Source: Bradyrhizobium acaciae
Lineage (GTDB): Bacteria > Pseudomonadota > Alphaproteobacteria > Rhizobiales > Xanthobacteraceae
Assembly: GCF_020889785.1 (NCBI RefSeq)
Contig: NZ_JACMYK010000001.1
Location: 186,001-250,000 of the forward strand
Direction of reading: 5' to 3'
DNA length: 64,000 nt
The notes under the pieces are model-generated. The model saw only the letters and a list, made by a program, of their open reading frames with translations. It was not told the DNA's origin and made no database searches. The first letter of the stretch is position 1, and every line of letters starts with the position of its first letter. The translations under genes were made by a program, and so were the position numbers. Positions 20,679 to 39,275 of this stretch are shown here, piece by piece.

Positions 20679-21578
20679 CTATGCGGGATGTCGCCCCTGA
20701 AGCAATTCATTCCGAGCCCGATGCTCGCTCTCCGGATCGAAAGCCTGTCCAACCCGCTGTTGGACATGTCCCTGAATTGCATCGATGACGTTTGATGAAT
20801 GCGTCACGAAGCCGAAGCATTTCTTGACGTTGAACAGCGTTGCTTCAACACAGAAGCCCGGCGAGGTCGTTGCGCAGCAGTCTTCGACCAGGAGGCAACC
20901 GTAACCCAGGAAATTCGCGTCGGTGAGCGAATGCAGCACGCATTGATCGGTGTTGACGCCGGCGAACAGGATCGTCTTGGTTCCGAGATTGCGCAGGATG
21001 CTGTCCAGCGGCGTGTCCCAGAAGCCGCTGATCCGGTATTTGTCGACGTGAATGTCCTCGGGTTCCTGCTGCAATTCATCGACGACCGCCGCGGCCCAGC
21101 TGTCCTTCTGCAATACGCGCGCGCCGCTGCCCGGCAAAGCCTCGCCAAGACCGATGCCGACCCCCTTCGGCTTGTACAAATGGAGCTGGTTGGGCGCCAT
21201 GTTCTTGAGATCGGGCCGATTGCCCCAGTTCAGCCAGATCACGTGCACGCCGGCATTCCGCAACACAGGGAGAAGCTTCTGCAGCGGCTCGATCGGCGCC
21301 CGATCCGGCGTGTGATCGAGGCCGAGATGGTCGACCCATCCCCCCTTCGCGCAAAAGTCGTTCTGCATGTCGACGACGATCAGAGCGGTGCGGTGCAGGT
21401 CGACCGTCACCGTTTGAGGTTGCGCGTCGATCGTGACGGCCTTGGGTGGCGGTGCCGCCATCGCCATGTTGACGTTGTTGTCGTCGACCAGCCATTTGTA
21501 GCCGGGAGCAGACCCGAGGGGATTGGCGGTGCCGGGCGCTGCGGATTCGGCGGCCTTTGCTAAAGTGGAACTCGTCAT
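20679..21578 (-). CDS. Isochorismatase-family cysteine hydrolase (ureide/amide type)
   Basis: 299 residues from an ATG with GGGAGGAAAG upstream; the frame continues far upstream but inside the permease gene. Catalytic triad Asp70 (LIVVDMQNDF), Lys180 (HVDKYRISGFWDT) and Cys213 (AGVNTDQCVLHSLTD). Members hydrolyse amides or carbamoyl compounds such as biuret, ureidoacrylate, N-carbamoylsarcosine and nicotinamide. The N-terminal 60 residues are an extension over the minimal fold. As the last gene of the FdrA-B/DUF1116-B/BmpA-transporter transcript it probably cleaves the imported ureide or a product of it. The exact substrate cannot be read from the sequence. Confidence 0.88.
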   Translation of the reverse strand: MTSSTLAKAAESAAPGTANPLGSAPGYKWLVDDNNVNMAMAAPPPKAVTIDAQPQTVTVDLHRTALIVVDMQNDFCAKGGWVDHLGLDHTPDRAPIEPLQKLLPVLRNAGVHVIWLNWGNRPDLKNMAPNQLHLYKPKGVGIGLGEALPGSGARVLQKDSWAAAVVDELQQEPEDIHVDKYRISGFWDTPLDSILRNLGTKTILFAGVNTDQCVLHSLTDANFLGYGCLLVEDCCATTSPGFCVEATLFNVKKCFGFVTHSSNVIDAIQGHVQQRVGQAFDPESEHRARNELLQGRHPA

Positions 21579-21622
21579 CGGACTTTCCTCCCTTGCATAT
21601 GTTTTCTTGAAGTCGGTTGCGA

Positions 21623-22546
21623 TCAGCCGCCGCGTTCGAACGGAATGGTCAGCGCCGAGGGCTGCCGGCTTTTTCCGACGAAGCCCGCGATGGCGACCAG
21701 CGCCAGCAGGTATGGCAGCAGCAACAGAAGCGCGACCGGCACATCGAGCTGCAACGCCGGCACCAGGAATTGCAGCGCGGTCGCGAAGCCGAACAGCAGG
21801 CACGCCGCCAGCGTGTACCAGGGATTCCAGCCGCCGAAGATCACGGCCGTGATTGCGAGATAGCCTGCGCCCTTGGTCATGTTCTCGGTGAACGTATTGC
21901 TGTCCGCAACCGACATGAAGGCGCCGCCGAGCCCGGCCAGGATGCCGGCGTAGAGCACGCCGAGATAGCGCGTCCTGGCGACGCTGATGCCCGCCTTGTC
22001 CGCAGCGCGGGGATCCTCGCCGACCGCCCGCACCGCCAGCCCGAAGGACGTATATTTCAGGATCAGCCAGGTCACGACGACCATCAGGATGCTGACATAG
22101 GCAAGGCCGGTCTGGTTCGCCAACGCCGGCCCGATTACCGGGATATGAGCGAGCCACGGCAGATTGAGCTGCGCGAAGCCGGGAATCGGATCGCGCGACA
22201 GCGGCCCGAAGATCTCACGGTAGAGAAACGTTGTTGATCCCAGCGCCAGGATGTTGAACCCGATCCCCACCACCAATTGATTGGCACGCAATGTCACGCT
22301 CAACACGGCCTGCGCCGCAGCAACCGCCGTCGCGACCAATACGCCGGCCGCGACGCCAATGAGCGGCGAGCCGGTCGCCCACGATGCCAGCGCCGCCGTG
22401 AAGGCCGACATCAACATCATGCCGTCGAGGCTGAGATTGAGCACGCCGGCGCGCTCGCTCAGCATCTCGCCCGTTGCGGCGAAAATGATCGGGACCGCGA
22501 GGCGAAGTCCGGAACCGATGAACACAGCCATTTGTTCGTCAATCAT
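21623..22546 (-). CDS. ABC transporter permease, BmpA-associated nucleoside type (YufQ-like)
   Basis: 307 residues, about 8-10 hydrophobic segments, BPD_transp_2 family: IIFAATGEMLSERAGVLNLSLDGMMLMSAF, RANQLVVGIGFNILALGSTTFLYR, FGLAVRAVGEDPRAADKAGISV, ARTRYLGVLYAGILAGLGGAFMS. In characterised systems (Bacillus NupNOPQ, streptococcal RnsABCD) this permease pairs with a second permease, a double-ATPase and a BmpA lipoprotein and imports nucleosides. Overlaps the second permease by ATGA. Here it lies in a ureide/carbamoyl context, so a nucleobase breakdown product is the more likely cargo. Confidence 0.9.
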   Translation of the reverse strand: MIDEQMAVFIGSGLRLAVPIIFAATGEMLSERAGVLNLSLDGMMLMSAFTAALASWATGSPLIGVAAGVLVATAVAAAQAVLSVTLRANQLVVGIGFNILALGSTTFLYREIFGPLSRDPIPGFAQLNLPWLAHIPVIGPALANQTGLAYVSILMVVVTWLILKYTSFGLAVRAVGEDPRAADKAGISVARTRYLGVLYAGILAGLGGAFMSVADSNTFTENMTKGAGYLAITAVIFGGWNPWYTLAACLLFGFATALQFLVPALQLDVPVALLLLLPYLLALVAIAGFVGKSRQPSALTIPFERGG

Positions 22547-23643
22547 CGGGTCACCTTTCGGTTGGTGAGGATCGCGGAGCCAGCAATGACGATGACGATC
22601 AGGCCCTGGCAGATCAGGACGACGGCGGACGGGACGTGCGCCGAGATCTCCATGTTGATCGATCCCGAGCGCAGGAATCCGAACAGCAACGCCCCGATCA
22701 CGACGCCGACGGCCGAGCCGCGCGACAGCAGGCCGACGACCAGGCCGTCAAATCCGTAACCGGACGAGAAATCGCTCGTCAGATAGAGTTGCTGGCCGAG
22801 GATCATGATCGCGCCGCCGAGACCGCCCAGGCCGCCGGACACCGTCATGGCCAGGATCACGTAGAAGCTCGTCCGCATGCCGGCGCGGCGGGATGCCGTC
22901 GCATTCAGGCCGACGGCGCGCAGCCGCAGGCCGAGCGTAGAGTGCTTGAGCACCAGCCACACCACGACGACCGCGATCGCCGCGATCAGCAATCCGATAT
23001 GGAGCGGAGATCCATTGTCCGGGAACAGCAGCGGCAGTTTGGTCGAATCCGGAATCTCTGCCGATTCCGGCAGCGACGACACGTCGCTGATCGGCTTGCG
23101 CAGCAGGTGAAAGGACTCGACCGACCAGTACACCAGCGGCAGCGCAATGAAGCTCAACAGCAAGGTGCTGATGACCTCGTTGGTGCCGCGTGCCGCCTTG
23201 AGGAAGCCCGCCAGGCCGCCCCAGACGGCACCGGCGACGGTTCCCACGGCAAGCGGCACGATGAACGCCAGCCCCAACGGCAGGCCCCCGGCGCCGTGCA
23301 GAGCCGCCGCGGTCGCGAACATGCCGCCCATCGCGATCTGCCCCTCGCCTCCCACATTGGTCAGGTTGGCACGGCTGGCGAAGATGAAGCCGAGACCGAC
23401 GAGCGCGAGGCTGATGGCGCGATTGATCGAAGCACCGATGTTGAAATCGCTTCCCGCCATGCCGTCCCAGAAGGCTTCGATCGCCTCGACGACGGACGCA
23501 CCGGTGGCAGCGATAATGAGCAGGCCGATCCCGAGCGCGATGACGGTCGACACTATCGGAACCAGAACCTGCAGCGGCACGAGCTTGCGCCGCGTGCCCT
23601 GCGCAAGCTTCGGATTTTTCATGACCATGGCCAACCTAGACAT
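22543..23643 (-). CDS. ABC transporter permease, BmpA-associated nucleoside type (YufP-like)
   Basis: 366 residues. Landmarks of the partner permease: GSDFNIGASINRAISLALVGLGFIFASRANLTNVGGEGQIAMGGMFA, ARGTNEVISTLLLSFIALPLVYW, LGLRLRAVGLNATASRRAGM, GYGFDGLVVGLLSRGSAVGVV. A long periplasmic or membrane-edge loop lies around residues 180-220. It overlaps the ATPase gene by 8 bases and the other permease by 4. It forms the heterodimeric membrane channel of the importer. Confidence 0.9.
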   Translation of the reverse strand: MSRLAMVMKNPKLAQGTRRKLVPLQVLVPIVSTVIALGIGLLIIAATGASVVEAIEAFWDGMAGSDFNIGASINRAISLALVGLGFIFASRANLTNVGGEGQIAMGGMFATAAALHGAGGLPLGLAFIVPLAVGTVAGAVWGGLAGFLKAARGTNEVISTLLLSFIALPLVYWSVESFHLLRKPISDVSSLPESAEIPDSTKLPLLFPDNGSPLHIGLLIAAIAVVVVWLVLKHSTLGLRLRAVGLNATASRRAGMRTSFYVILAMTVSGGLGGLGGAIMILGQQLYLTSDFSSGYGFDGLVVGLLSRGSAVGVVIGALLFGFLRSGSINMEISAHVPSAVVLICQGLIVIVIAGSAILTNRKVTR

Positions 23644-25189: not shown

Positions 25190-25191
25190 GG

Positions 25192-26178
25192 TCAGCCCAC
25201 CTTGACTTTGATCTTGTTCGACAGCAGGTCGTCCTTGAGCTCCTTGATCTTCGCCTGGATCTCGGGCGTTGCCCCAGCGCAGATCTCGATGTCGGCCGAG
25301 CGTGGCCCCATGGCGAGGCCGAACTGCTTGTATTCCGGGTGCCACGTTCCGGCGACGGCCTGGTCGATGGCGTATTCGACCATGAACCCGATGCCGCTGA
25401 CCGTGTAGGCGATGTAGAGCGGGTTGTTGTCGGAGCAGTAATTGGTATAGCTCCCGATCATCCTGGTGCCCTTCTCGCGCGCCGCCTGCTCCATTCCGCG
25501 GACACCGAGATTGAGGATGTTGTAGTGGACGTCAGCCCCTTGCGCGATCGAGGCAAGCGTTGCTTCCTTCGCCTTGGCGACGTCGTCAAAGTCGCCGGTG
25601 TAAGTCACGAAGCATTTGGTATCCGGCTTGACGTGCTTGGCGCCGTTCGCGAATTCCGTTCCGGTGTTGACGATGGCTGGAATTTCAAGCCCACCGACGT
25701 AGCTCACCGCGCCGTTCTTCGACATCATCGCGGCGACCGCGCCGGCAATGAAGCCGATCTGGGCCTGCAGCACGTCGTATTGCGCGACGTTGTCGGTCGG
25801 CTGTCCGGTCGGGCCGACGATCGAGAACTTCACCTTCGGGAACCGCTTGGCGACCTTGAGCACCGAGGCCTGGGTCTGCCCCGCGGCGCCGATCACCATG
25901 TCGTTCTTGGTCGCGAGCGTGACGAGCGCCTGCTCCATGTCGGCAAACTTCACGTTCTCGATCGACGTGATCACGACTTTCTTGCCGTGGCGTTGCTCGG
26001 CCGCCTTCATGCCGTTATAGGCCGACTCCATCCAGCCATGGTCGGCCCGCGACCCCGGAATCAGAATGCCGATGCGGAGCGGCTTCGCGTCGTCAGCGAA
26101 TGCGAGCCGGCCTGATGAACCGATAAAGGCCGCCGAGAGCAGGCCTGTTTGCAGAAATGCACGACGGGTACCGTTCAT
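25192..26178 (-). CDS. BmpA/Med-family solute-binding protein with Tat-like signal
   Basis: 328 residues. The N-terminus TRRAFLQTGLLSAAFIG has a twin-arginine motif, so export may be folded through Tat. The mature domain is BmpA: LRIGILIPGSRADHGWMESAYNGMKAAEQ, NDMVIGAAGQTQASVLKVAKRFPKVKFSIVGPTG, QAQIGFIAGAVAAMMSKNGAVSYVGG, RMIGSYTNYCSDNNP. The family binds purine nucleosides or, in proteobacteria, related heterocycles. AGGAGG precedes the ATG. It lies 109 bases after the DUF1116-B gene with a hairpin between them, so it may also be transcribed separately at higher level. Confidence 0.9.
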   Translation of the reverse strand: MNGTRRAFLQTGLLSAAFIGSSGRLAFADDAKPLRIGILIPGSRADHGWMESAYNGMKAAEQRHGKKVVITSIENVKFADMEQALVTLATKNDMVIGAAGQTQASVLKVAKRFPKVKFSIVGPTGQPTDNVAQYDVLQAQIGFIAGAVAAMMSKNGAVSYVGGLEIPAIVNTGTEFANGAKHVKPDTKCFVTYTGDFDDVAKAKEATLASIAQGADVHYNILNLGVRGMEQAAREKGTRMIGSYTNYCSDNNPLYIAYTVSGIGFMVEYAIDQAVAGTWHPEYKQFGLAMGPRSADIEICAGATPEIQAKIKELKDDLLSNKIKVKVG

Positions 26179-26243
26179 GTGTTTCCTCCTGTTCGTTCCC
26201 GCTGTTGCCGCATTCTTTTGTCACGGCATTTTTGTTATCTACG

Positions 26244-26262
26244 GCGCGGCCATCGGCCGTGC
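26244..26262 (-). terminator. Hairpin between DUF1116-B and bmpA-type gene
   Basis: GCGCGGCC-ATC-GGCCGTGC forms an eight-pair stem with one G-T pair, in the 109-base gap. No T-run follows on either strand. It may attenuate or stabilise the polycistronic message; a full stop is not expected because the downstream genes follow closely. Confidence 0.4.
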
Positions 26263-26287
26263 TGCCGCCTTCAGAATCGAAGCAACC

Positions 26288-27736
26288 TCATCTCGCGGCA
26301 ATCGTCGCCAACGCTCCCACGGCGTCGACGAAGCACTTCATCGGGGCCTGCACGACGCCGGCGCCGATGATCCCCTTGCCCGGCTCCTTGTGCGCCGTTG
26401 CGGTGTTGATGACCGGCCGCATGCTCTCGTCGACGACCTTGCGGATGTCGATGCCGACCGGAGCTCCGATGAAGTCGAGCATCGGCAGAGTGAAGCCGGG
26501 ATTGCGGCCGACGGTGACGTGCGCCATCTCGCGCGAATAGCGCAGCGCGTCCTGCGGCGTGCCGCCGACGAACTGGACCATCGCGGGAGCCGCCGCCATC
26601 GCAAACGCGCCGAGCCCAGCGGTCTCGGTGATCGCGCTGTCGCCGATATCGGGATTGGCATCCGCCTCGCTGAAGCCGGGCAGGAACAGGCCGATGGGGA
26701 TGTCGGCCGGGCCGACGAACCATTGCCCGTCCAGTCCGCTGACCCTGATGCCGACATTCACGCCGTTGCGCGCCATCGCCGTAACGATGCTGCTGAACGG
26801 CACGCCGTGCGCGGCATCCATGGTCGCCTTGCACGCCGCCATCGACAGGCTCAGGAAGAACATGTCGTCCGCCCCGATCGTCCGCAGCGTCTCGTGAACG
26901 ACATCGCGCGAGATCGAGGACTTGAGCAGCGCTTCCGTGACGGCGCGATACAGCAGCAGGGTCGCGGCCGTGTTGCGATTGTGGACGTCGTCGCCCATAT
27001 GCAACGACTGCGACATCAGCGGCTTCAACGGCAACCCGCCATCGATGCCGGCGACGGCGGCCTTCAGGCACGGCGCCAGCACATTCTCGATCAGCTTGAG
27101 GCCTTCGATCACTTCAGCGGCGAAAGCGCCGAAGCGCAGCGTCTTGGCGCCACCGGATTCCATCATCGGCGCATAGGCGCGATTGCCCGTGGTCTTGTTC
27201 TCCACCACGAACAGCGGCATCGAGGGCGACACGATCCCGGTCATCGGCCCGACCGCGCCGAATTCATGGCACGGCGCGAAGCGGATGCCGCCTGACGCGG
27301 CGAGTTGCTCGGCCTCGTCGGGGGTCGCCGCCCAATTCTCGTAGAGGATTGCGCCGACCACCGCCCCCTTCATCGGACCGCACATATCGTTCCAGGCGAT
27401 CGGCGGGCCGGCATGGAGCAGCGTCCGGCCCATGTCCGGCCAGATCTCGGATGCGTGCGCCGCGACGTCGACCCATACCGGCTGTGCGGTCAGGATGCGC
27501 TCGAGCACTTCCGCATTGGCGCGGTCGATCCGCGATCCCAGGCAATCGGCATTACCGGCATCGCCAACCAGTTGCGCGAGGCTCCAGGCGACCTCGGGAC
27601 TTCCATCGCCGACCGGCCGCCACTGCAGCCGCACCAGCGGCGCACCGCTGCTTTCGACACCGCGATCGAGGTCGGCGGCGCCGAGGCTGATGACCGATGT
27701 CTTGGCCTGGAGAGCGAAGGGCGCTCCGTTCATCAT
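26288..27736 (-). CDS. DUF1116 / YlbE-like protein, copy B with fused N-terminal domain
   Basis: 482 residues. Family motifs: LLHAGPPIAWNDMCGPMKGAVVGAILYE, RFAPCHEFGAVGPMTGIVSPSMPLFVVENKTTGNRAYAPMMESGGAKTLRFG, QSLHMGDDVHNRN, NGVNVGIRVSGLDGQWFVGPADIPIGLFLPGFSEADANPDIGDSAI. E. coli YlbE (AllG) is reported to be a subunit of oxamate carbamoyltransferase together with FdrA and YlbF. Residues about 14-56 (VISLGAADLDRG...VRLQWRPVGDGSPEVAWSLAQLVG) match a separate 62-residue protein coded before copy A. ATGA overlap with FdrA-B. Likely cytoplasmic, forming a complex with FdrA-B. Confidence 0.85.
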   Translation of the reverse strand: MMNGAPFALQAKTSVISLGAADLDRGVESSGAPLVRLQWRPVGDGSPEVAWSLAQLVGDAGNADCLGSRIDRANAEVLERILTAQPVWVDVAAHASEIWPDMGRTLLHAGPPIAWNDMCGPMKGAVVGAILYENWAATPDEAEQLAASGGIRFAPCHEFGAVGPMTGIVSPSMPLFVVENKTTGNRAYAPMMESGGAKTLRFGAFAAEVIEGLKLIENVLAPCLKAAVAGIDGGLPLKPLMSQSLHMGDDVHNRNTAATLLLYRAVTEALLKSSISRDVVHETLRTIGADDMFFLSLSMAACKATMDAAHGVPFSSIVTAMARNGVNVGIRVSGLDGQWFVGPADIPIGLFLPGFSEADANPDIGDSAITETAGLGAFAMAAAPAMVQFVGGTPQDALRYSREMAHVTVGRNPGFTLPMLDFIGAPVGIDIRKVVDESMRPVINTATAHKEPGKGIIGAGVVQAPMKCFVDAVGALATIAAR

Positions 27737-29331
27737 CGTTCTCCTCCTTGCATCGCACGACGCCCTGTGCCGCTGTCATCGGCCGCCATGCGGCTCGCGA
27801 TGGCTTGGGCGGCAAGGGCCGCGCCGGTGCTGCTGCCGACAATCTCCGCGCCGGCTTCCACCAGCATGGCTTTCTGGGTTCCGACCGGCTGCGGATCTGA
27901 ATCCGTGCCGCAGACGAAGCAGATCACGGGAACCTCCCGCCCTTGCGCCCGCGCGGCGGCCTTCGCCCGGCGGACGGCCGGAGCCAGAATTTCTGCCGGA
28001 TTCGGGTGACTGCCGTGGCCCAGCACGACGTCCAGAACGATGCAGGCAACGGTCGGATCGTCCGCCTCCTTCAGCAGCCGCTCGATCCGCACGCCATAGT
28101 CGATCATCGGATGCGGACGCCCCACCGTGAATTCGTCACTGCCCAGATCGATCGCCGTGTGTCCGTGGCTCTCCTCCACGTCGGCGAGACGGTCTGCGGC
28201 GGCAAGCGGCGCGTTCGACCGGGCACGAATGCCCGCGGCCTGCCAAATGGTTTGGGCTTCCGAGCAGAACGTGCCGCCGGAATAGAGACCGCGCAGGTAG
28301 CGCTGCGACGGCGCCAGCGCCGCACAAATCCGCGTCGCCAATTGTTCAATGGCCTGATCGTCGCTGCCGGGCTGGCGCGCGCCCGCAAGCGCAACGGCCT
28401 GCCGCGCCGTCTCTTCGAGCGACGAGGTACGGTGGATATTGCCGGCGGATGCCGCAGGCTCGCCGCCGAGAAAGCAGATCACGACCGGCTTGCCGATCGC
28501 GATCGCGCGCTCGATCACGTGCTTCTGCACGTCGCGTGCAGGAGGCTTGGAGACGATAGCGACAACCTTTGTCTGCGGGTCGGCCGCCAGCAACTCGAGG
28601 CCCTGCAGCATGGTGATGCCGCCGACCTCGCTGGAAACGTCGTGGCTGCCGGTGCCGATGGCCTGCGATATGCCCTGGCCATGACGGTGGACCTGGCACA
28701 TGACCTCCTGCAGGCCTGTGCCCGACGCGCCGACGAGCCCGATGACGCCCCGCCGAACGACGTTGGCAAATCCGAGCGGCACGCCGTTGATGATCGCCGT
28801 GCCGCAGTCCGGTCCCATCACCAGCAAGCCCTTCTGGGCCGCAACGCGCTTGATGGCCTGCTCCTGCTCGATCGGCACGTTGTCGCTGAACAGCAGCACG
28901 TTCAGGCCCTGGCGCAGCGCCTTCAAGGCTTCCGCCGCGGCATAGGGGCCCGGCACCGAGATCAATGCGAGGTCGGCATGATCGGCAATCGCGACGCCGC
29001 CGGAGATCGATCGCGGCGGCGCTTCCGCCGCAGGTTCGCCCGCCCCACCCTTCGGTTCTTCGCCGACGATCAGGGAGTGAATCTCCCGCTCTGCGGCGGC
29101 GAGCTTTTCAGGTGCGTCGTCCGCCACGACGATCATGATATCGCCCGGTTTGGCGCCTTCGAGCGCGGGGTTCATCAGCCCGGCCTGCTGCAGGAATTCC
29201 TTGTTGCTGCGCGTTCCCATCAGCAGCGTGACCCGCTGCACGCCGGTCCGCGCGACCGTGACCTGCGAGATCCGCATCAACGACACGGAATCCTTGTACA
29301 GGTTCGCCCTTATGCTGGATTGGATGGCCAT
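27733..29331 (-). CDS. fdrA: FdrA-like protein, copy B
   Basis: 532 residues, related to succinyl-CoA synthetase alpha/beta chains by fold. Visible: VLLFSDNVPIEQE, LLVMGPDCGTAIINGVPLGFANVVRRGVIGLVGASGTGLQEV (nucleotide/CoA-binding-type loop), GLYSGGTFCSEAQTIW at the position of the ligase phospho-histidine loop but with a Cys, and GRPHPMIDYGVR. FdrA (AllF) of E. coli is reported as a subunit of oxamate carbamoyltransferase, which phosphorolyses oxalurate to oxamate and carbamoyl phosphate. First gene of a transcript that continues into DUF1116-B, the BmpA importer and the isochorismatase-type hydrolase. It is clearly diverged from copy A, so the pairs may act on different substrates. Confidence 0.87.
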   Translation of the reverse strand: MAIQSSIRANLYKDSVSLMRISQVTVARTGVQRVTLLMGTRSNKEFLQQAGLMNPALEGAKPGDIMIVVADDAPEKLAAAEREIHSLIVGEEPKGGAGEPAAEAPPRSISGGVAIADHADLALISVPGPYAAAEALKALRQGLNVLLFSDNVPIEQEQAIKRVAAQKGLLVMGPDCGTAIINGVPLGFANVVRRGVIGLVGASGTGLQEVMCQVHRHGQGISQAIGTGSHDVSSEVGGITMLQGLELLAADPQTKVVAIVSKPPARDVQKHVIERAIAIGKPVVICFLGGEPAASAGNIHRTSSLEETARQAVALAGARQPGSDDQAIEQLATRICAALAPSQRYLRGLYSGGTFCSEAQTIWQAAGIRARSNAPLAAADRLADVEESHGHTAIDLGSDEFTVGRPHPMIDYGVRIERLLKEADDPTVACIVLDVVLGHGSHPNPAEILAPAVRRAKAAARAQGREVPVICFVCGTDSDPQPVGTQKAMLVEAGAEIVGSSTGAALAAQAIASRMAADDSGTGRRAMQGGER

Positions 29332-29561: not shown

Positions 29562-30521
29562 CTATTGAATGACGTGCGTGCCGGTCTCGCCGCGCAGCGC
29601 CGCCATCGCGCAATCGAGGTGACTGATGATCGCGCGCTTTCCACCGCCCTCGAGAAACCGGATGGCCGCATCGACCTTGGGGCCCATGCTTCCCGGAGGA
29701 AAATGGCCTTCGCGATGGTAGGCCTTGATCTCCTCGAGGCTGACCTGATCGAGTTCCCTCTTGTTCGGCTTGCCGAAGTTCACGGCGACGCGCGGCACTG
29801 CCGTCAGGATCAGCAACTCTTCGATACCCAGCACATTCGCGATATGAGCTGATGTCAGGTCCTTGTCGATCACTGCCGGCACACCGGTGCGAACGCCCTT
29901 TGCGTCACGAACCACGGGAACGCCGCCACCCCCTCCCGCGATGACGATCGTCCCCCGCTTGACCAATGCATCGACCAGCGAGATGTCGCAGACATGCTTG
30001 GGCTTCGGCGACGGCACGACATGACGCCAGCCGCGCCCCGAGTCCTCGCGCATTGCCCAATTGAGCTCGTCGCCGATCTTCCTGGCCTCGTCCTCGGAAA
30101 AGAACGGCCCGACGAACTTCGTCGGATTTTTGAACGCGGGATCGTCCTTGTCGACCTCGACCTGGGTCAGCAGGCTTGCCACATGCCGCTGATTGCCCTG
30201 TTCGCGCAGGGCGTTCTCGATCGCCTGCATCAGGAGATAGCCGATGCCGCCCTGGCTGTGCGCGACGCAGATGTCCATGTCCATCGGCGGAATTCGGTTC
30301 ATCGTCAGCATCTGGCGCATCATGATCTTGCCGACGACCGGGCCGTTGCCGTGCGTGATGACCAGCTCATTGTCGAGCTGCGCAAGCGGCAGCAGCGCCT
30401 CCGCGGTGATCTGCGCAACGGACTTCTGCTCCTGGGAAGTGCCCCTGATGTCTTCGGGGTGAACCGCATTGCCGCCGATCGCAACCACCAGGCGACGCGG
30501 CACGTCATTGAGCGTACGCAT
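29562..30521 (-). CDS. arcC: Carbamate kinase
   Basis: 319 residues from an ATG after GGGAGGTAAGGAA. Amino-acid kinase fold: RRLVVAIGGNAVHP, LVITHGNGPVVG, MDICVAHSQGGIGYLLMQAIEN, AGGGGGVPVV, AVIDKDLTSAHIANVLGIEELLILTAV, HFPPGSMGPKVDAAIRFLEGGGKRAIIS. It transfers phosphate from carbamoyl phosphate to ADP, giving ATP, ammonia and CO2. It follows FdrA-A by four bases, so carbamoyl phosphate released by the FdrA/DUF1116 enzyme would be used directly. E. coli pairs its catabolic carbamate kinase (YbcF/AllK) with the same enzyme. Confidence 0.95.
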   Translation of the reverse strand: MRTLNDVPRRLVVAIGGNAVHPEDIRGTSQEQKSVAQITAEALLPLAQLDNELVITHGNGPVVGKIMMRQMLTMNRIPPMDMDICVAHSQGGIGYLLMQAIENALREQGNQRHVASLLTQVEVDKDDPAFKNPTKFVGPFFSEDEARKIGDELNWAMREDSGRGWRHVVPSPKPKHVCDISLVDALVKRGTIVIAGGGGGVPVVRDAKGVRTGVPAVIDKDLTSAHIANVLGIEELLILTAVPRVAVNFGKPNKRELDQVSLEEIKAYHREGHFPPGSMGPKVDAAIRFLEGGGKRAIISHLDCAMAALRGETGTHVIQ

Positions 30522-30525: not shown

Positions 30526-32034
30526 TTACCTCCCGGCATTCTGGACGATGGCGACCGCAAGCTCGCAGGCCTGCGCGTTCGACGGCGCAACGAGGATTCC
30601 GGCTTGCTCCAGTTTCCTGACCTGCGCGGAGCGTCCTTGCGGATCCTGCTCCGTGCCAACGACGGACGCGATCAATACCGGTGCATCTCGCCCACGATCC
30701 GCGACGATCCTGGTCAGGTGCTCGGCGGGATCGGCGTGCGCGCCGTAGCCGAGCACAAGATCAAGCAGGATCACCGAAAGGTCGCCGTTCCTGAGTGCAG
30801 CACGCAACGCTTCGTCGCGCACTGACGGGTCGATCATCGGGTGCGGCCGGCCACGGGTATATTCGTCGTCGCCGAGGTCGATCAGCCGATCGCGTCCGTC
30901 GTTCGGCTCGACCCCAAGCTTGAGCACGCCGGGGATGGCCGCATTCGACGCCACCTTCCGGCCTGCGGCAGCGAGGATCACCTGCGCTTCGGCGCACAGC
31001 GTGCCGCCGGCGAACAAGCCCTCGATCCCGCCACGACCGTTCCGCGGAATCCTTGACGCAACCGCGTTGGTGTCGAAGTCTGCTCCGATCTTCTGGTGTC
31101 CCAATGCGAGCTCCGCGGCGCCTTTCAGCGTCGGCGAGAAGCGGGCGTTCGGCGGCAGCTCGACCTCCGAAGCGCCGATGAAGCAGACGGTGAAGAACTT
31201 CTTGCTTTTGCCGATCCGCTGAAGGACGGATTTGGCGACATCAGGATGCGGCGGCTTCGAGATCAGCACCACGTGGTCGGTTTCCGGATCGGAATCGAAC
31301 GCATCGATCGCCATCAGCGTGGTGATGCCGCCGATGTCCTTCTTCAGATCGCGCCCGCCGACGCCGATGGCATGGGAGATTCCCGCGCCGGCCTCCGAGA
31401 TCAGGCAGGAGACCTCCTGCGTTCCGGTACCCGACGCGCCGACGATGCCGATCCTGCCGCGCGTCAGCTTGTTGGCGAACGCCAGCGGCGCGCCGCCGAG
31501 CACGGCGGTTCCGCAATCCGGTCCCATCATCAGGAGGCCGGCCGCCCGCGCCTGCTGCTTGAGCGACAATTCGTCCTCGAGCGACACGTTGTCGCTGAAC
31601 ATCAGGACATGCAGGCCGCGATTGAGCGCCTTGCGGGCTTCGGCGGCTGCGAACTCGCCGGGCACGGAGATCAGCGCGAGATTGATCTCCGGCCTGTTCT
31701 TCACGGCCGCGGCGATCGAGTGCGGTCGCCAGGCCGACTGTGCCTCGCCCTGGCTCTTCGGCTTGTCGAGCGACTTGATCGCATTGTCGAGGGCTTCGCG
31801 GGCAGCGGTCTCGGACTCGGCCTTGACGGCGATCACGAGGTCATTGCCCTTCACGGCAGTGCCCTCCTCGAGCAGCCCCGCATTGCGCATGATCGCAGCG
31901 TTCGACGGAGTGCCCATCATCAACGCCGCCTCGATCACGCCGGGCGCCCCGGCGACCTCGCGCGACAGCCGCATCAGCGCGACCGAATCGAGGTAGAATC
32001 CCTTGCGGACCTCATTCAGGACAACGACGTTCAT
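30526..32034 (-). CDS. fdrA: FdrA-like protein, copy A
   Basis: 502 residues; the ATG overlaps the DUF1116-A stop (ATGA). Landmarks with approximate positions: MFSDNVSLEDE (145-155), MGPDCGTAVLGG (170-181), GIVGASGTGTQEV (196-208), GLFAGGTLCAEAQ (339-351), RGRPHPMID (394-402), DLVLGYGAHADPAEHL (425-440). The layout is that of the CoA-ligase-like FdrA family, one subunit of the reported oxamate carbamoyltransferase. The transcript order is small N-domain protein > DUF1116-A > FdrA-A > carbamate kinase. Copy B at 27733 shares these motifs but differs widely elsewhere. Confidence 0.88.
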   Translation of the reverse strand: MNVVVLNEVRKGFYLDSVALMRLSREVAGAPGVIEAALMMGTPSNAAIMRNAGLLEEGTAVKGNDLVIAVKAESETAAREALDNAIKSLDKPKSQGEAQSAWRPHSIAAAVKNRPEINLALISVPGEFAAAEARKALNRGLHVLMFSDNVSLEDELSLKQQARAAGLLMMGPDCGTAVLGGAPLAFANKLTRGRIGIVGASGTGTQEVSCLISEAGAGISHAIGVGGRDLKKDIGGITTLMAIDAFDSDPETDHVVLISKPPHPDVAKSVLQRIGKSKKFFTVCFIGASEVELPPNARFSPTLKGAAELALGHQKIGADFDTNAVASRIPRNGRGGIEGLFAGGTLCAEAQVILAAAGRKVASNAAIPGVLKLGVEPNDGRDRLIDLGDDEYTRGRPHPMIDPSVRDEALRAALRNGDLSVILLDLVLGYGAHADPAEHLTRIVADRGRDAPVLIASVVGTEQDPQGRSAQVRKLEQAGILVAPSNAQACELAVAIVQNAGR

Positions 32035-33281
32035 GACACCCCCAAATCCTTGGCGATGGCCACGATCGCCTGCTGGAAGCACGCCAACGGCGCCTTGACC
32101 ACGCCGGCACCGACCTGGCCGATGCCGGGCTCGCGATGCGCGATGCCGGTGTTAATGACGGGCACCACGCCGGAATCGACGACCAGGCGGATATCAATGC
32201 CGGTCGGCACGCCCGCGAAATCCATGGCGGCGATGGTCCATTCTGGATTCTGCGCAACCGTGATCTCGCCCATCGCGCGGGTGAAATTGCCGGCCTCGGA
32301 CGGCGCGCCGGCCCCCACGAAGCCCGCGACTGCGGGCGCGGCCGCCATCGCAAATCCGCCCAGACCGATCGTCTCGACGATAGCGGAATCGCCCATGTCC
32401 GGATTGGCGTCCTTCTCGGAATAGCCCGCAAAATACAGCCCCTCTGGCATTTCGACCGGCGCGGTGAACCATTGCTCGCCGAGCCCGCTGACCCGGATCC
32501 CGAAATCGGTGCCGTTGCGGCACATGGCGGTGACGATGGTCGAACCGCGAATGCCGTTCGCGGGATCGGTGATCGCCTTGCCCATCGCCATCGCGATATT
32601 GAGGAAGAACTGATCGTTTTGCCCGATGAATGCGAGGCATTCGGCGAGAACGGCGTTGTCGGTCGAGGTCCGCGCCATCCAGGGCGCGATCTCACGAAGG
32701 AAAACGCTCGAGCAGGCGAGATTGCGCTGATGCAGCTCGTCGCCCATCGACAGGCCGCGCGCGACGATCGATTTCAGGTCGATGCCGCCGGCGGCACGGA
32801 TCGCCTTGCCCAGAGTCGGCCCGAACACGTCGCGCAACCAGGCGAGCCGCTTCAGCACGCTCGCGTCGTTGCCGCCGAAGCGCATCACCTTGCCGAGCCC
32901 CTCGTTGATCGCGCAATAGGCGCGATTTCCGAAGCGCGCGTTCTCGACCACGAACAACGGCATCGATATCGTCGTCATGCCGGTCATCGGGCCAACCGCC
33001 CCGAAGTGATGGTTCGGGTGAAATTCGATCTCGCCGCTGGCCGCGAGCTTGGTCGCAGTCGGCAGATCCTGCGCCCATCCCTCGAACACGATGGCGCCCG
33101 CGACCGCACCGCGCATCGGCCCGCACATCCTGTCCCAGGAGATCGGCGGTCCGGCGTGCAGGATCATCCGTTCGCGCAGGCCCGGGATCAATTCGCGGGC
33201 GGGAACGATGTCGATCAGCCTGGGCTCTCCTTCGAGGATCCGCTCGAGTGCCTGCTGGTTTGCGTCTTCGATCAGTTTCAT
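32031..33281 (-). CDS. DUF1116 / YlbE-like protein, copy A (core only)
   Basis: 416 residues. Begins at KLIEDANQQALERILEGEPRLIDIVPARELIPG and has all core motifs: ILHAGPPISWDRMCGPMRGAVAGAIVFE, EFHPNHHFGAVGPMTGMTTISMPLFVVEN, NRAYCAINEGLGKVMRFGG, GLSMGDELHQRN, GTDFGIRVSGLGEQWFTAPVEMPEGLYFAGYSEKDANPDMGDSAIVE. The N-terminal ~50 residues found in copy B are absent and are supplied by the separate gene 10 bases upstream. Together with FdrA-A, and probably DUF2877, it should form the carbamoyltransferase complex. Confidence 0.87.
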   Translation of the reverse strand: MKLIEDANQQALERILEGEPRLIDIVPARELIPGLRERMILHAGPPISWDRMCGPMRGAVAGAIVFEGWAQDLPTATKLAASGEIEFHPNHHFGAVGPMTGMTTISMPLFVVENARFGNRAYCAINEGLGKVMRFGGNDASVLKRLAWLRDVFGPTLGKAIRAAGGIDLKSIVARGLSMGDELHQRNLACSSVFLREIAPWMARTSTDNAVLAECLAFIGQNDQFFLNIAMAMGKAITDPANGIRGSTIVTAMCRNGTDFGIRVSGLGEQWFTAPVEMPEGLYFAGYSEKDANPDMGDSAIVETIGLGGFAMAAAPAVAGFVGAGAPSEAGNFTRAMGEITVAQNPEWTIAAMDFAGVPTGIDIRLVVDSGVVPVINTGIAHREPGIGQVGAGVVKAPLACFQQAIVAIAKDLGVS

Positions 33282-33291: not shown

Positions 33292-33480
33292 TCACACGCC
33301 GAGCTTCGCGAGCAGGGCCGCCATCTGCGGATCGCCGCCCGCCGATGGCTTCCAGTCGACGTGAACGACGTCGATGCCGCAATCGCGGAGGTCCTTCACG
33401 AACCCCTCAAGCCCGACATTCACGACTTCGACCTTGCGCGCCAGCAACTGCTGATACTGCGGCCCATCCTGATCCGTCAT
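33292..33480 (-). CDS. Small protein equal to the DUF1116 N-terminal domain
   Basis: 62 residues. The stretch VEVVNVGLEGFVKDLRDCGIDVVHVDWKPSAGGDPQMAALLAKLG lines up with residues 14-56 of DUF1116 copy B (VISLGAADLDRG...LVRLQWRPVGDGSPEVAWSLAQLVG). It is therefore a free-standing form of the domain that is fused in copy B. It ends 10 bases before DUF1116-A in a different frame, with its own start, and is the first gene of that transcript. The conserved V(N/S)xG...xWxP pattern suggests a small alpha/beta subunit. Function unknown. Confidence 0.8.
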   Translation of the reverse strand: MTDQDGPQYQQLLARKVEVVNVGLEGFVKDLRDCGIDVVHVDWKPSAGGDPQMAALLAKLGV

Positions 33481-33509: not shown

Positions 33510-33548
33510 TACGATGAATTAATAAGAAAATACTTACTTCGTCAAGAC
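33510..33548 (-). promoter_or_regulatory. Promoter/operator region of the DUF1116-A/FdrA-A/carbamate kinase operon
   Basis: On the coding strand CTTGACGAAGTAAGTA (complement of 33531-33546) gives a TTGACG -35-like box, followed by the A+T-rich TTTTCTTATTAAT. A closely similar element, TTGAC-N3/4-GTAA, occurs before the gamma-glutamyltransferase-like gene (43369-43385) and, inverted, before the Liv solute-binding gene (39343-39361). A shared regulator is suspected. Confidence 0.5.
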
Positions 33549-33616
33549 CGGATTCTCGTGAAATGCAAAACTCTGTGCCCGGTCGCGGAGCGGATCGGTC
33601 GAAAGCGATCCCGCCT

Positions 33617-33647
33617 TAAAAAAAGTGCTCCGAACTTGGTTCGGAGC
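33617..33647 (-). terminator. Rho-independent terminator after the DUF2877 gene
   Basis: On the minus strand a nine-base perfect stem (GCTCCGAAC, loop, GTTCGGAGC; 33627-33647) is followed by seven T (A-run at 33618-33624). It lies 28 bases after the DUF2877 stop. It ends the Liv-importer transcript and separates it from the DUF1116-A operon. Confidence 0.88.
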
Positions 33648-33674
33648 AGTTTGGGAGAACTTGAAATTCGATCG

Positions 33675-34616
33675 TCATCGCTCGCGAAGGGCGTGGCGCA
33701 GGACGATCAGACTGCCTGCAAATGCGTCCCGGCCGGATGTGTGGCCGATCGCGGCGAGCGCCGCGAAGGCGCGGCGAACTCCGGCGACCTCCCCGCTCAT
33801 CGTCGCATGGATGGCGGCGTGCAGTGCTGCCGCGCCGTAGCCCAGCGCCGCCGCGCGCAGATGAATTCGGCTGATGTCGTTGGTACCGTCGAGCAGCGTG
33901 CGGCAACGGTCCCACAACGCATCGCGCCGTTCGGTGCGCCCCAGCGCAGCCAGCGCGATCAGCGCACCGCCGATCAGATCGTCGCCGGACGGTGTAAGCC
34001 CCGGCCCGAGACCGATCAAGCTGCCAAGGCCGGAGTCTTGAACCGCATGGTCATCCCCTCCTGCCAGGACACGTTCCAGCGCAGCGAGACCGGGCATGGC
34101 GGCCCGAACCAGCGCAGAGGCATCGCTCGGAACAGGTCCGGCCCCGACAGCGGCCAGGCCTTCGGAAGTCAGATCATCGCCCCACATCTCGTCGACGGCA
34201 TCAAGGCCGCGTCGGAGGCTGCCGATCGACCAATGCGGCGCAGCGCGCGGCGCCCAGACGGACCGCGCGGCGAGATTTGCGAGCGGCGTCCCTGCGATCC
34301 ACAGAACGCAGTCCGCGACCCGCACGGGATCGCCGACCACAAGACCCGGCCAACGGAAGTCGCCGAGCACCTGCAACGGCCCCGATCCGATACCGGTCTG
34401 TCCAATGCAGATCCAGATCCCGTCGATGACGGCGTAGAACGAACGCTCGAACACGGCGACGACCTGGCCCGCGGCGCGGTCGCGAAGCGCCCTGTCGGCA
34501 AGGAGGCCTACTTCCACACAGTCACAGATCGTCGTTGCGGGCATACGACGCCGCTCGCCGGGCGCGCCCGCGCAAACCTGCGTCCTCCCCTCAGCTTCGC
34601 GGTCTCCGACAAGCAT
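33675..34616 (-). CDS. DUF2877 protein (YlbF/AllH-like)
   Basis: 313 residues; the ATG at 34616 has AAGGAGG nine bases before it, though MPATTICDCVEVG at 34544 would be closer to the usual N-terminus. The family signature SLIGLGPGLTPSGDDLIGGALIALAAL lies near 200-225. E. coli YlbF (AllH) is reported as the third component required for oxamate carbamoyltransferase. Here it is the last gene of the Liv-type importer operon, 15 bases after the triple-fusion transporter gene, and is separated from DUF1116-A and FdrA-A by a terminator. Only one DUF2877 gene serves the two FdrA/DUF1116 pairs. Confidence 0.82.
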   Translation of the reverse strand: MLVGDREAEGRTQVCAGAPGERRRMPATTICDCVEVGLLADRALRDRAAGQVVAVFERSFYAVIDGIWICIGQTGIGSGPLQVLGDFRWPGLVVGDPVRVADCVLWIAGTPLANLAARSVWAPRAAPHWSIGSLRRGLDAVDEMWGDDLTSEGLAAVGAGPVPSDASALVRAAMPGLAALERVLAGGDDHAVQDSGLGSLIGLGPGLTPSGDDLIGGALIALAALGRTERRDALWDRCRTLLDGTNDISRIHLRAAALGYGAAALHAAIHATMSGEVAGVRRAFAALAAIGHTSGRDAFAGSLIVLRHALRER

Positions 34617-34631
34617 CCGCCCTCGCCTCCT

Positions 34632-37166: not shown

Positions 37167-38038
37167 ACCTTCTTAACTCCGGCTCGGCCGAGCAGCCCGT
37201 GCGGCATGACGACGAGGATGACAATGACGGATGCAAACGTGATGATCTGGGTGTAGACCGATCCGAGATAGTTGGTCGCGAACACCTCGATCAGGCCGAG
37301 ACACAGCCCGGCCAGCATGACGCCCCAGGCGCTGCCAAGACCGCCGATGATGGCGGCGGCGAACGCCTTGATGCCGAACAGCGTGCCCATCTCGGACGAG
37401 ACGTTGAACAGCGGCGCAATCAGCAGCGCCGCGACGCCCGCCAGCATGGCCGACACCGCGTAGCTCGCGGCAATGGCGCCGCTGACATTGATCCCCATCA
37501 GCCGTGCGGCATTGGGATTCTGCACCACCGCAAGCATCGCGACGCCATGCCGCGTGCGGCGGGTGATCAGATGCAGCGCCAGCGCAAGCAGGAGGCCGAC
37601 CACGGGAATCAGGAGCTGCAGGGGATAAACCCCTGCCCCCTCGACGATCTGGATCGGCTTGGCCGCGAGCATCGACGGGAAGCTGCGCGGCTCCTTGCCG
37701 AACACGAACAGCATCAGGTTGTCGACCATGATGCCGACCGCCACGGTCGCCATCAGCCAGCTGTCCGACCCGCGCAGCACGAACGGACGAACCGCGAAGC
37801 GTTCGATCAGAACGCCGTAAACAGCGCAGACCAGCAACACCGCGGGGATGCCGATCGCGGCCGGCCAGCCCCACACCACGAGGAAGAAGTATCCGGCAAC
37901 GGCTCCCAGGGTCATCGAGCTGCCCTGCGAGAAGTTGACCGTGCCGGACACGGCATAAGTGACGTGAAAGCCCAGCGCGAGCAGACCGTACATGCTCCCC
38001 AGCGCCATTCCGGTTATTATCGCCGAAAGAAACGACAT
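37163..38038 (-). CDS. livH: LivH-type ABC transporter permease
   Basis: 291 residues with about eight membrane spans: GSMYGLLALGFHVTYAVSGTVNFSQGSSMTLGAVAGYF, VLIERFAVRPF, ALHLITRRTRHGVAMLAVVQNPNAARLMGINV, FGIKAFAAAIIGGLGSAWGVMLAGLCLGLIEV (EAA-like loop). Pairs with the LivM part of the following fusion protein. Overlaps it by ATGA and follows the solute-binding gene by 40 bases. Confidence 0.93.
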   Translation of the reverse strand: MSFLSAIITGMALGSMYGLLALGFHVTYAVSGTVNFSQGSSMTLGAVAGYFFLVVWGWPAAIGIPAVLLVCAVYGVLIERFAVRPFVLRGSDSWLMATVAVGIMVDNLMLFVFGKEPRSFPSMLAAKPIQIVEGAGVYPLQLLIPVVGLLLALALHLITRRTRHGVAMLAVVQNPNAARLMGINVSGAIAASYAVSAMLAGVAALLIAPLFNVSSEMGTLFGIKAFAAAIIGGLGSAWGVMLAGLCLGLIEVFATNYLGSVYTQIITFASVIVILVVMPHGLLGRAGVKKV

Positions 38039-38078
38039 CGATGATCACCCCGATCTGCTTGCTGGACCACCGTTGCCG

Positions 38079-39275
38079 TCAGTTCTTGAACGGCAGGATG
38101 TGGTTGTCTTCGAAGTGGGCCCAGATGTAGTCCTGGGCCGTCAGCGCATCGTGCTTGTTCTGGGCGAACGGCTTTTCATAGGTCTTGATCAGGCCTTCCA
38201 GCCGGTCGATTCCGTAGAAGCCGTCGCGAATGGCGGTTGGATCGGTGCTGCCGGCCTTCTGGATCGCGCCGGCAATCACCATGACGCTGTCATAGGCGTT
38301 GGCGAAGCCGACCGCAGGGGTCACGTCCGCAGGCCCCTTGATATCCGGATACTTCGCCTGCAGCTCGGCGAGCACGCGCCTGCCGACCGGCGAGAGGTTG
38401 CCGAAGAAGCTGTAGGTCTGGACGAAGACGACGCTCTCGGCGCTCGGCCCGGCGAGCTCGGTGAAGCGGCCACCGGCCGGCCCCCAATGCGACACGATCG
38501 GCGGCGACCAGCCCATCCGGTCGAGCGATTTCACGACCTGCGAAGACGGACCGACATTGCCGACCAGGAACAGCGAATCGGCGCCGGCCTGCTTGAGCCG
38601 CGACAATTGCGCGACGACGTCGACATCGTTCGCCTCGAACTTCTCGACACCCGCCGGCTCGATACCGGCCGCCTTCAGCGCGGCGCGCAGGCCGTGCTCG
38701 TTCGATTCGCCCCAGGGATTGTTGACGAGGATGAGACCCGGCTTCTTGGCTGCAAAGGTCTTGCCGGCGAACGCAACGATCGCCTTGTCGACCTCGTCGT
38801 CCATCGCCGATACTCGGAACACATAGTTGGACGCGGCGCCGTTCTGCGTGATGTTGGTTCCGGCGGCCCACGGCACCACGAACGGCATCTTGACGTTGTT
38901 GACGAACGGCACGATCGCAAGCTGGACCGGCGTATCGAGACCACCGAGCAGCACTGCGACCTTCTCGCGCTGGATCAGCTCGCGCGCGGCGGTCAGCCCC
39001 TTCGCGGGATTGCTTTCATCGTCACGGCGCACCAGCTCGAGCGGACGGCCGAGCACGCCCCCTTTCGCGTTGATGTCCTCGATCGCGATCGTGGCGCCGC
39101 GGGTCAGCGCTTCGCCGCGCGCGCCGCTCGACAGCGCCGTGACCAAGCCGATCTTGATCGGTTCGGCGGCCAGCGCGCGCTCCGCAAACGGCAGAGAGCC
39201 GATGAGAATGGCGAGCGCGCCCTGCAAGACAACGCGGCGGCGCAACCCGGTAATGGGGGTACAAGCGTAGATCAT
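38079..39275 (-). CDS. LivK-type solute-binding protein of the Liv importer
   Basis: 398 residues; GGAGGA precedes the ATG. N-terminal signal (LRRRVVLQGALAILIGSLPFAERALAAE) with arginines near the start, Sec or Tat. Mature Peripla_BP_6 domain: IKIGLVTALSSGARGEALTRGATIAIEDINAKGGVLGRPLELVRRDDESNP, AVLLGGLDTPVQLAIVPFVN, GLILVNNPWGESNEHGLRAALKAAG. First gene of the operon that ends with DUF2877, so its ligand is probably the substrate of the carbamoyltransferase system, for example a ureide, amide or oxamate-like acid (inference). Confidence 0.92.
   Translation of the reverse strand: MIYACTPITGLRRRVVLQGALAILIGSLPFAERALAAEPIKIGLVTALSSGARGEALTRGATIAIEDINAKGGVLGRPLELVRRDDESNPAKGLTAARELIQREKVAVLLGGLDTPVQLAIVPFVNNVKMPFVVPWAAGTNITQNGAASNYVFRVSAMDDEVDKAIVAFAGKTFAAKKPGLILVNNPWGESNEHGLRAALKAAGIEPAGVEKFEANDVDVVAQLSRLKQAGADSLFLVGNVGPSSQVVKSLDRMGWSPPIVSHWGPAGGRFTELAGPSAESVVFVQTYSFFGNLSPVGRRVLAELQAKYPDIKGPADVTPAVGFANAYDSVMVIAGAIQKAGSTDPTAIRDGFYGIDRLEGLIKTYEKPFAQNKHDALTAQDYIWAHFEDNHILPFKN

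What the first reader, a model, noticed from the sequence alone, without database searches (positions are those of the whole stretch)
20679..39275. Doubled FdrA/DUF1116 carbamoyltransferase system wired to two ABC importers
The stretch holds two FdrA-like and two DUF1116 genes, one DUF2877, one carbamate kinase, an isochorismatase-type hydrolase and two complete importers (BmpA/nucleoside type and Liv type). In E. coli single fdrA, ylbE and ylbF genes are reported to make oxamate carbamoyltransferase, paired with a carbamate kinase. Doubling with strong divergence, and linkage of each half to its own importer, suggests two carbamoyltransferases for different imported ureides or carbamoyl compounds feeding one ATP-yielding kinase. 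I know of no described aerobic system of this layout.
Basis: partly seen in the sequence, partly recalled or inferred. Interest (0 to 1): 0.88.

Follow-up and report, generated by a model that had tools for sequence, protein, structure and literature searches.

The report
Twin carbamoyl-stripping enzymes sharing one kinase
A bacterium, likely a Bradyrhizobium, carries side by side two different gene sets related to E. coli's oxamate carbamoyltransferase, each next to its own importer genes, with only one gene for a third enzyme part and one for a likely ATP-making kinase; together they are predicted to draw nitrogen and energy from urea-like compounds such as oxalurate.

Summary
One strand of 20679-39275 encodes two complete AllF/AllG pairs (FdrA + DUF1116), one AllH (DUF2877), one carbamate kinase, an isochorismatase-type hydrolase and two full ABC importers. 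The pairs, 41% (F) and 51% (G) identical, come from different old lineages: pair 2 groups with E. coli AllFG, the proven oxamic transcarbamylase; pair 1 with Pandoraea and Paraburkholderia genes. Twelve other Bradyrhizobium genomes hold both pairs; one holds only the Liv half. Of 14 two-AllG genomes counted beside E. coli, 13 have a single AllH. The likely route is oxalurate to oxamate plus carbamoyl phosphate, then oxalate, ammonia and ATP. What pair 1 acts on is open. E. coli K-12 has two sets (allFGHK, yahEFGI), and nitrifiers have a published allFGHK/importer/isochorismatase cluster, so this is a new variant of a known kind. No activity was tested.

The parts
38079..39275 (-). LivK-type substrate-binding protein, module A importer
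   Evidence: Pfam Peripla_BP_6 187 bits
37163..38038 (-). LivH-type permease, module A importer
   Evidence: Pfam BPD_transp_2 128 bits
34632..37166 (-). LivM-LivG-LivF in one 844-aa protein (permease + two ATPase domains)
   Evidence: Pfam BPD_transp_2 at 30-291 and two ABC_tran stretches; NCBIfam LivG/LivF-like stretches
33675..34616 (-). AllH (DUF2877), the only match in the genome
   Evidence: PF11392 73.5 bits against cut-off 25; one match in G000
33292..33480 (-). 62-aa gene 'X', unlisted: stand-alone form of a domain found at the AllF C-terminus in E. coli and at the AllG N-terminus in YahG and AllG1
   Evidence: tblastn of the E. coli AllF C-terminus E 3.2e-10, 40% over 53 aa; domain found with 125 of 125 close AllG genes; no Pfam hit
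32031..33281 (-). AllG2 (DUF1116), pair 2
   Evidence: PF06545 310 bits; 53% to E. coli AllG
30526..32034 (-). AllF2 (FdrA), pair 2; ATG 32034 overlaps the AllG2 stop by 4 nt
   Evidence: NCBIfam PRK06091 FdrA 482 bits against 433; start inferred from the translation
29562..30521 (-). carbamate kinase, the only one over cut-off in the genome
   Evidence: TIGR00746 364 bits against 358 (two further matches in the genome score 24 and 23 bits); start codon read
27733..29331 (-). AllF1 (FdrA), pair 1
   Evidence: NCBIfam PRK06091 FdrA 496 bits against 433
26288..27736 (-). AllG1 (DUF1116) with N-terminal X domain, pair 1
   Evidence: PF06545 281 bits; X domain
25192..26178 (-). BmpA-type substrate-binding protein, module B importer
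   Evidence: PF02608 127 bits
23636..25345 (-). NupA-type ATPase (two ABC domains); true start probably near 25192
   Evidence: ABC_tran 173 bits, two stretches; NCBIfam matches begin near residue 54
22543..23643 (-). NupB-type permease
   Evidence: BPD_transp_2 121 bits
21623..22546 (-). NupC-type permease
   Evidence: BPD_transp_2 146 bits
20679..21578 (-). isochorismatase-type cysteine hydrolase with Asp-Lys-Cys positions kept
   Evidence: PF00857 131 bits; aligned to 6azo family and RutB
39587..40807 (+). amidohydrolase, AtzC / cytosine-deaminase type, divergent from module A; inferred cyclic-imide hydrolase
   Evidence: NCBIfam PRK05985 550 bits against 408; best PDB match 6nbo; 35% to YahJ
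40914..41687 (+). TetR-family regulator
   Evidence: TetR_C_29 137 bits; beside the amidohydrolase in G004, G010, G042, G044, G049, G054
41740..43332 (-). HpxW-type Ntn hydrolase (GGT superfamily), predicted oxamate amidohydrolase
   Evidence: best sequence match 5hft, titled 'Crystal structure of HpxW', 46-49% in the large chain; below the GGT equivalog cut-off, 303 against 358

Best explanation
The locus holds two AllF/AllG gene pairs of different old lineages, each beside its own ABC importer, predicted to be carbamoyltransferases that would share one AllH and one carbamate kinase to turn imported N-acyl ureas into carbamoyl phosphate, ammonia and ATP. Shown here: the genes, their lineages, the single AllH and single kinase, the X domain, and the gene order in relatives. 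Inferred for module A (Liv importer, AllH, X, G2, F2, kinase, amidohydrolase, HpxW type): the importer brings in a cyclic or open ureide; the amidohydrolase opens the ring (parabanate to oxalurate is my first guess); AllF2-AllG2-X-AllH with phosphate splits oxalurate into oxamate and carbamoyl phosphate; the kinase makes ATP, ammonia and CO2; the HpxW-type enzyme turns oxamate into oxalate and ammonia. Inferred for module B (F1, G1 with fused X, BmpA-NupABC, isochorismatase type): pair 1 does the same phosphorolysis on a related N-acyl urea, borrowing AllH and the kinase from module A, while the cysteine hydrolase removes an amide or carbamoyl group before or after that step.
For: Pair 2 is in a clade with E. 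coli AllF/AllG (13 of 69 rows, SH-aLRT 98; 24 of 66 rows, 98), whose product is a proven oxamic transcarbamylase (PMC11326118: abstract, discussion and passages read). The HpxW-type gene: a close copy (55% or more) is in 16 of 18 genomes searched, namely 12 of 12 other Bradyrhizobium genomes (84% or more; at the module A end, about 8 kb from AllH where coordinates can be compared), both Afipia-type genomes (between AllH and a kinase start), Paraburkholderia oxyphila and a groundwater MAG; Pandoraea and a Rokubacterium lack one (best 39% and 44%). In 385 alphaproteobacterial genomes, 11 of 16 with AllH have an HpxW-type gene (48% identity or more) against 23 of 369 without; 5 of the 16 have it within 11 kb of AllH or AllG. 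AllH is single in 13 of 14 two-AllG genomes counted beside E. coli: G000, G004, G042, G044, G049, G054, G100, G101 (a third, distant AllG there not counted), G102-G104, G149, G289. One carbamate kinase over cut-off in the genome. Both pairs keep all strongly conserved columns. AllD, E. coli's ureidoglycolate dehydrogenase, is not over its cut-off here (206 against 496), so oxalurate would have to come from outside or from a cyclic imide; [quoted passage not shown] the paper itself was not seen).
Against: No activity, import or expression was tested. Sharing of AllH is inferred from counts; pair 1 may not need it. The 14th genome, G091, has two close AllG with AllF and X but no AllH match (90% complete, 770 contigs), and G132 has one close AllG and no AllH. 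E. coli K-12 has two of each. E. coli AllFG joins the pair-2 clade by a long branch (0.9-1.0 changes per column). HpxW-type genes also accompany lineage 1b (G149, Paraburkholderia, groundwater MAG), so lineage 1 may use oxalurate too. Five of 16 AllH genomes in the class sample have no HpxW-type gene, six of the 11 that have it do not show it close by, and 23 genomes have one without AllH. The isochorismatase type sits with a pair-2-type FG in G289 (L134), so accessories are not tied to one lineage. The amidohydrolase is 28-35% to neighbours of other FG clusters, which could be any member of a large family.
Confidence: 0.55

Rival explanations
1. Both pairs make the same oxamic transcarbamylase activity on oxalurate and differ only in regulation or in the importer that feeds them.
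For: HpxW-type genes accompany both lineages in other genomes (L034, L035, L128 for lineage 1, there next to or near a 1b AllG; Bradyrhizobium, L141, L143 for lineage 2). All strongly conserved columns are kept in both pairs.
Against: The pairs are only 41% and 51% identical, from separate clades, kept side by side in 12 other Bradyrhizobium genomes; module B has no HpxW-type gene of its own where it stands alone (L031, L032) and brings a different importer and hydrolase.
Confidence: 0.22
2. The four F and G proteins form one mixed enzyme around a single AllH, with the two G proteins as unlike halves.
For: One AllH per two G genes in 13 of 14 genomes; in Pandoraea, Paraburkholderia and a groundwater MAG two G genes go with a single F in the locus.
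Against: G010 has only F2-G2, so pair 2 exists without pair 1; in Afipia-type genomes the pairs lie on different contigs.
Confidence: 0.12
3. The FdrA-like proteins are acyl-CoA synthetases, as annotated, and the pairs belong to a CoA-ligase pathway.
For: Pfam CoA_binding and Ligase_CoA domains; PDB matches to succinyl-CoA synthetase alpha chains.
Against: No ATP-grasp domain was found in them; regular companions are AllG, AllH and carbamate kinase (AllH in 73 and kinase in 56 of 109 loci with a close AllG, many of them short or cut); the E. coli member makes carbamoyl phosphate (PMC11326118).
Confidence: 0.03

Closest known systems
E. coli AllFGHK, oxamic transcarbamylase plus carbamate kinase (PMC11326118)
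   Same: F, G, H and kinase; pair 2 in the same clade
   Different: X is fused to the AllF C-terminus; no ABC importer or HpxW type is annotated beside the operon; E. coli has AllD for oxalurate, missing over cut-off here
E. coli yahE-F-G-I-J, second set, function unknown to me
   Same: H, F, G with N-terminal X, kinase, amidohydrolase; best BLAST match among the E. coli proteins of F1, kinase and amidohydrolase
   Different: Has its own AllH; the trees do not place pair 1 with it; no ABC importer annotated beside it
biuH - bmpA-nupABC - allFGHK clusters of comammox Nitrospira and ammonia-oxidising archaea (PMC12625717)
   Same: Isochorismatase type, Bmp importer, F, G, H, kinase, aerobic hosts
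   Different: In the section read no second FG set, HpxW type or Liv importer is told of in the cluster; atzF or a gatA-like gene is
Klebsiella HpxW, oxamate amidohydrolase (PDB 5hft)
   Same: Best sequence match of 41740-43332, 46-49% in the large chain, catalytic Thr position kept
Ureidoglycine carbamoyltransferase of Rubrobacter xylanophilus (PMC4016543, passages read)
   Same: Catabolic release of carbamoyl phosphate from a ureide, beside a carbamate kinase
   Different: It belongs to the ATCase-like carbamoyltransferase superfamily; AllFGH shows no similarity to that family (PMC11326118 abstract)

Membership tests
Oxamic transcarbamylase (AllFGH) | AllF, AllG and AllH subunits encoded together | tested here: met
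   Pair 2 with AllH and X adjacent; family cut-offs passed. Pair 1: F and G met, no AllH of its own.
Oxamic transcarbamylase (AllFGH) | Grouping with the characterised E. coli enzyme | tested here: met
   Pair 2 yes, SH-aLRT 98, by a long branch; pair 1 no, it lies in another clade
Oxamic transcarbamylase (AllFGH) | Oxalurate + phosphate to oxamate + carbamoyl phosphate | not testable with these tools
   Needs purified proteins
Oxamate amidohydrolase HpxW | Closer to HpxW than to gamma-glutamyltranspeptidase, with the autoprocessing Thr | tested here: met
   5hft first by sequence (292.5 bits large chain, 262 small chain; E. coli GGT 2e0w 164); Thr344 invariant in 26 sequences and aligned to residue 391, the start of the E. 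coli GGT small chain; GGT equivalog cut-off missed
Oxamate amidohydrolase HpxW | Hydrolysis of oxamate | not testable with these tools
   Needs an assay
Biuret hydrolase BiuH / ureidoacrylate hydrolase RutB | Curated family score | tested here: not met
   20679-21578: RutB 154 against 378, BiuH 141 against 370; catalytic Asp, Lys, Cys aligned, so it looks like a working member of the superfamily but is neither by score
Succinyl-CoA synthetase / acyl-CoA synthetase | ATP-grasp domain in the protein | tested here: not met
   Pfam finds only CoA_binding, Ligase_CoA and, in AllF1, a weak Succ_CoA_lig; a separate subunit could carry it, none was found among the scanned genes of the cluster

The most novel reading that the evidence does not exclude
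The two carbamoyltransferases work in series on a dicarbamoyl compound: pair 1 strips the first carbamoyl group, the cysteine hydrolase frees the acid, pair 2 strips the second from oxalurate, and the HpxW type finishes the oxamate, giving two ATP per molecule through one AllH and one kinase. Bacteria seem to have built this pairing twice, with G2 in Bradyrhizobium and Afipia and with lineage 1b in Burkholderiales. The enzyme also has a fourth, movable part, X, overlooked so far.
Probability: 0.15. Interest if true: 0.75.

Novelty: new variant of a known kind. Interest (0 to 1): 0.52.

Why it matters
AllFGH is a transcarbamylase class whose genes were identified only in 2024, with one characterised member in what I read and no worked-out mechanism there. 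This locus gives separable versions of it, in a genus I know as aerobic, with probable upstream and downstream enzymes attached, so the substrate of each version can be tested directly. The X domain, found with 125 of 125 close AllG genes in three positions, suggests that the enzyme has four parts, not three, and gives a clean deletion test. The link to HpxW joins two purine-waste routes, E. coli ALL and Klebsiella HPX, that were described apart.
Full report
OBSERVATION. The minus-strand array 39275-20679 was read as ORFs and scanned with Pfam and NCBIfam. In the order of transcription: LivK, LivH, a fused LivM-LivG-LivF, AllH, [62-aa X], AllG2, AllF2, carbamate kinase, then 230 bp, AllF1, AllG1, Bmp, NupA, NupB, NupC, isochorismatase-type hydrolase. 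I call the first part module A and the second module B. Divergent on the plus strand lie an amidohydrolase and a TetR regulator, then on the minus strand an HpxW-type gene, and beyond it glxR, hyi and gcl (the names hyi and gcl rest on Pfam domains, protein length and likeness of order to E. coli).

HOW DIFFERENT ARE THE PAIRS. AllF1 and AllF2 are 41% identical, AllG1 and AllG2 51%. A concatenated F+G tree of 69 rows (SH-aLRT only) puts pair 2 with E. coli AllF/AllG (98, E. coli and its two kin on a long branch) and pair 1 in a 10-row clade with Afipia, Pandoraea, Paraburkholderia and a groundwater MAG (100), apart from E. coli YahF/YahG. A second tree of 66 rows with alphaproteobacterial additions repeats this and splits the pair-1 lineage in two: 1a (module B and kin) and 1b (a second G in Pandoraea, Paraburkholderia and the MAG, and the F-H-G-HpxW set of G149). 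Both pairs keep all 69 and 79 strongly conserved columns.

MODULES. The window genome is an unnamed one whose closest named matches are Bradyrhizobium (AllG1 98% in B. oropedii). Of 59 other genomes of the genus, 6 have a close AllG, 5 of them two copies about 5.75 kb apart; a seventh, G020, has only a distant DUF1116. In the two Afipia-type draft genomes, module B is on its own contig, X-G2-F2-kinase on another, and amidohydrolase-AllH-HpxW-kinase start on a third.

ONE AllH, ONE KINASE. Of 14 genomes with two close AllG genes counted beside E. coli, 13 have one AllH: the six two-module Bradyrhizobium genomes searched (own included), G100 to G104 (G101 with a third, distant AllG without X or F), and G149 and G289 in the class sample. 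The 14th, G091 (90% complete, 770 contigs), has none. E. coli K-12 has two and two. In 385 alphaproteobacterial genomes, 15 of 16 AllH genomes have a close AllG; 2 of 17 genomes over the AllG threshold lack AllH, G132 and G360, and the G360 gene proved to be of the distant kind (L144). The own genome has one carbamate kinase over the curated cut-off. Sharing is an inference from these counts.

A FOURTH PART, X. Between AllH and AllG2 is an unlisted 62-aa gene, 33480-33292. The C-terminal 75 residues of E. coli AllF match it (E 3.2e-10), as do the N-terminal extensions of YahG (3.6e-7) and AllG1 (6.6e-6) (E for this window). A profile of this domain finds it with 125 of 125 close AllG genes (HMM score over 500) in the fetched loci: 83 at the AllG N-terminus, 37 as a separate small ORF nearby, 5 at the AllF C-terminus; and with 0 of 6 distant DUF1116 genes, none of which has an AllF within 4.5 kb (loci include close relatives). 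In loci fetched after the profile was built it was found with 17 of 17 and 8 of 8 close AllG genes. It has no Pfam family. It lies inside the solved E. coli FdrA, 3dmy residues 427-474 (the profile contains that same E. coli sequence). A domain that sits on F, on G or alone, and was never missing here, is best read as a working part of the complex. I did not see it described in the passages read of PMC11326118, PMC3364942 or PMC12625717; I made no dedicated literature search for it.

THE HpxW-TYPE GENE. 41740-43332 is mostly named gamma-glutamyltransferase or -transpeptidase elsewhere, but it falls short of the NCBIfam GGT cut-off, and its best PDB sequence match is 5hft, titled 'Crystal structure of HpxW'. 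By whole-chain fold, 2nlz, a Bacillus acylase, ranks first, the 5hft chains being scored apart. Seven of the 120 homologues listed carry the name oxamate amidohydrolase from a source. That HpxW turns oxamate into oxalate and ammonia I take from a passage of PMC5270733; the primary paper, Hicks and Ealick 2016, was not held. A close copy (55% or more) is present in 16 of 18 genomes searched, not in Pandoraea or a Rokubacterium, and where the loci were read it lies in or near the F/G/H cluster. In other lineages it is next to or near AllH or AllG: G149, G289, G315, G405. Over 385 genomes the association with AllH is 11 of 16 against 23 of 369. The known substrate of HpxW is the very product of AllFGH, which is the best argument that module A handles oxalurate.

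THE AMIDOHYDROLASE AND THE HYDROLASE. 39587-40807 is of the AtzC/cytosine deaminase type and resembles YahJ of the E. coli yah set (35%). Similar proteins (28-34%) lie near AllG in 11 of 96 non-Bradyrhizobium loci, YahJ's own included. With no AllD over cut-off, a ring-opening step such as parabanate to oxalurate is an attractive source; this is inference, helped by the 1965 title on induction by parabanic acid. The isochorismatase type keeps the Asp, Lys and Cys positions of BiuH and RutB (which residues are catalytic is recalled) but meets neither family's cut-off; related hydrolases lie near AllG in 17 of 96 non-Bradyrhizobium loci, module B of L031-L034 included.

VERDICT. A real, conserved, modular system: a known enzyme class doubled from two lineages, with shared AllH and kinase likely. 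Different substrates for the two pairs are possible but unproven, and some evidence (HpxW with lineage 1b as well) speaks against it. The layout is not wholly unprecedented: E. coli K-12 has two sets, and nitrifiers have allFGHK with a Bmp importer and an isochorismatase type (PMC12625717). New to me are the doubled, one-AllH arrangement, the link to HpxW, and X; eight paper searches brought no paper that I saw to describe them.

Noticed in passing
window 33292-33480 (-): 62-aa unlisted gene, stand-alone form of a domain fused to AllF or AllG elsewhere; found with every close AllG checked.
   Followed up: yes
L013, L017, L018, L019, L121, L144: A distant DUF1116 family with no AllF within 4.5 kb and no X domain (6 of 6), some near Liv-type or Nup-type transporters or a Rieske-oxygenase-like gene; probably another enzyme.
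   Followed up: partly
L033, L034, L035: One AllF with two AllG genes and one AllH in a row (F-G-kinase-H-G', then an HpxW type in L034 and L035).
   Followed up: partly
L014, L015 (G091): A draft genome with two close F/G sets and no AllH match; either AllH is missing from the assembly or it can be done without.
   Followed up: no
window 34632-37166 (-): LivM, LivG and LivF fused into one 844-aa protein, kept in the Bradyrhizobium relatives read.
   Followed up: no
L117, L118: Afipia-type genomes: amidohydrolase, AllH, HpxW type and the start of a kinase in one row, while X-G2-F2 on another contig also runs into a kinase start; perhaps two kinase copies.
   Followed up: no
L025, L028: In two draft Bradyrhizobium genomes some genes of the array fall into two reading frames (hydrolase in L025; LivMGF, AllF2 and NupB in L028), perhaps sequencing errors.
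   Followed up: no
window 43478-46997 (-): glxR-hyi-gcl type glyoxylate genes beside the HpxW type, as gcl-hyi-glxR lie near allFGHK in E. coli, but not seen near it in G010 and G054.
   Followed up: partly
window 5651-20441: Rieske oxygenase, CoA-transferases, acyl-CoA dehydrogenases and further Liv-type binding proteins next to the array: looks like a separate aromatic or acid degradation cluster.
   Followed up: no
L149, L150 (G639): Another genome with a pair-2-type and a lineage-1-type FG set, on different contigs (by BLAST likeness only).
   Followed up: no
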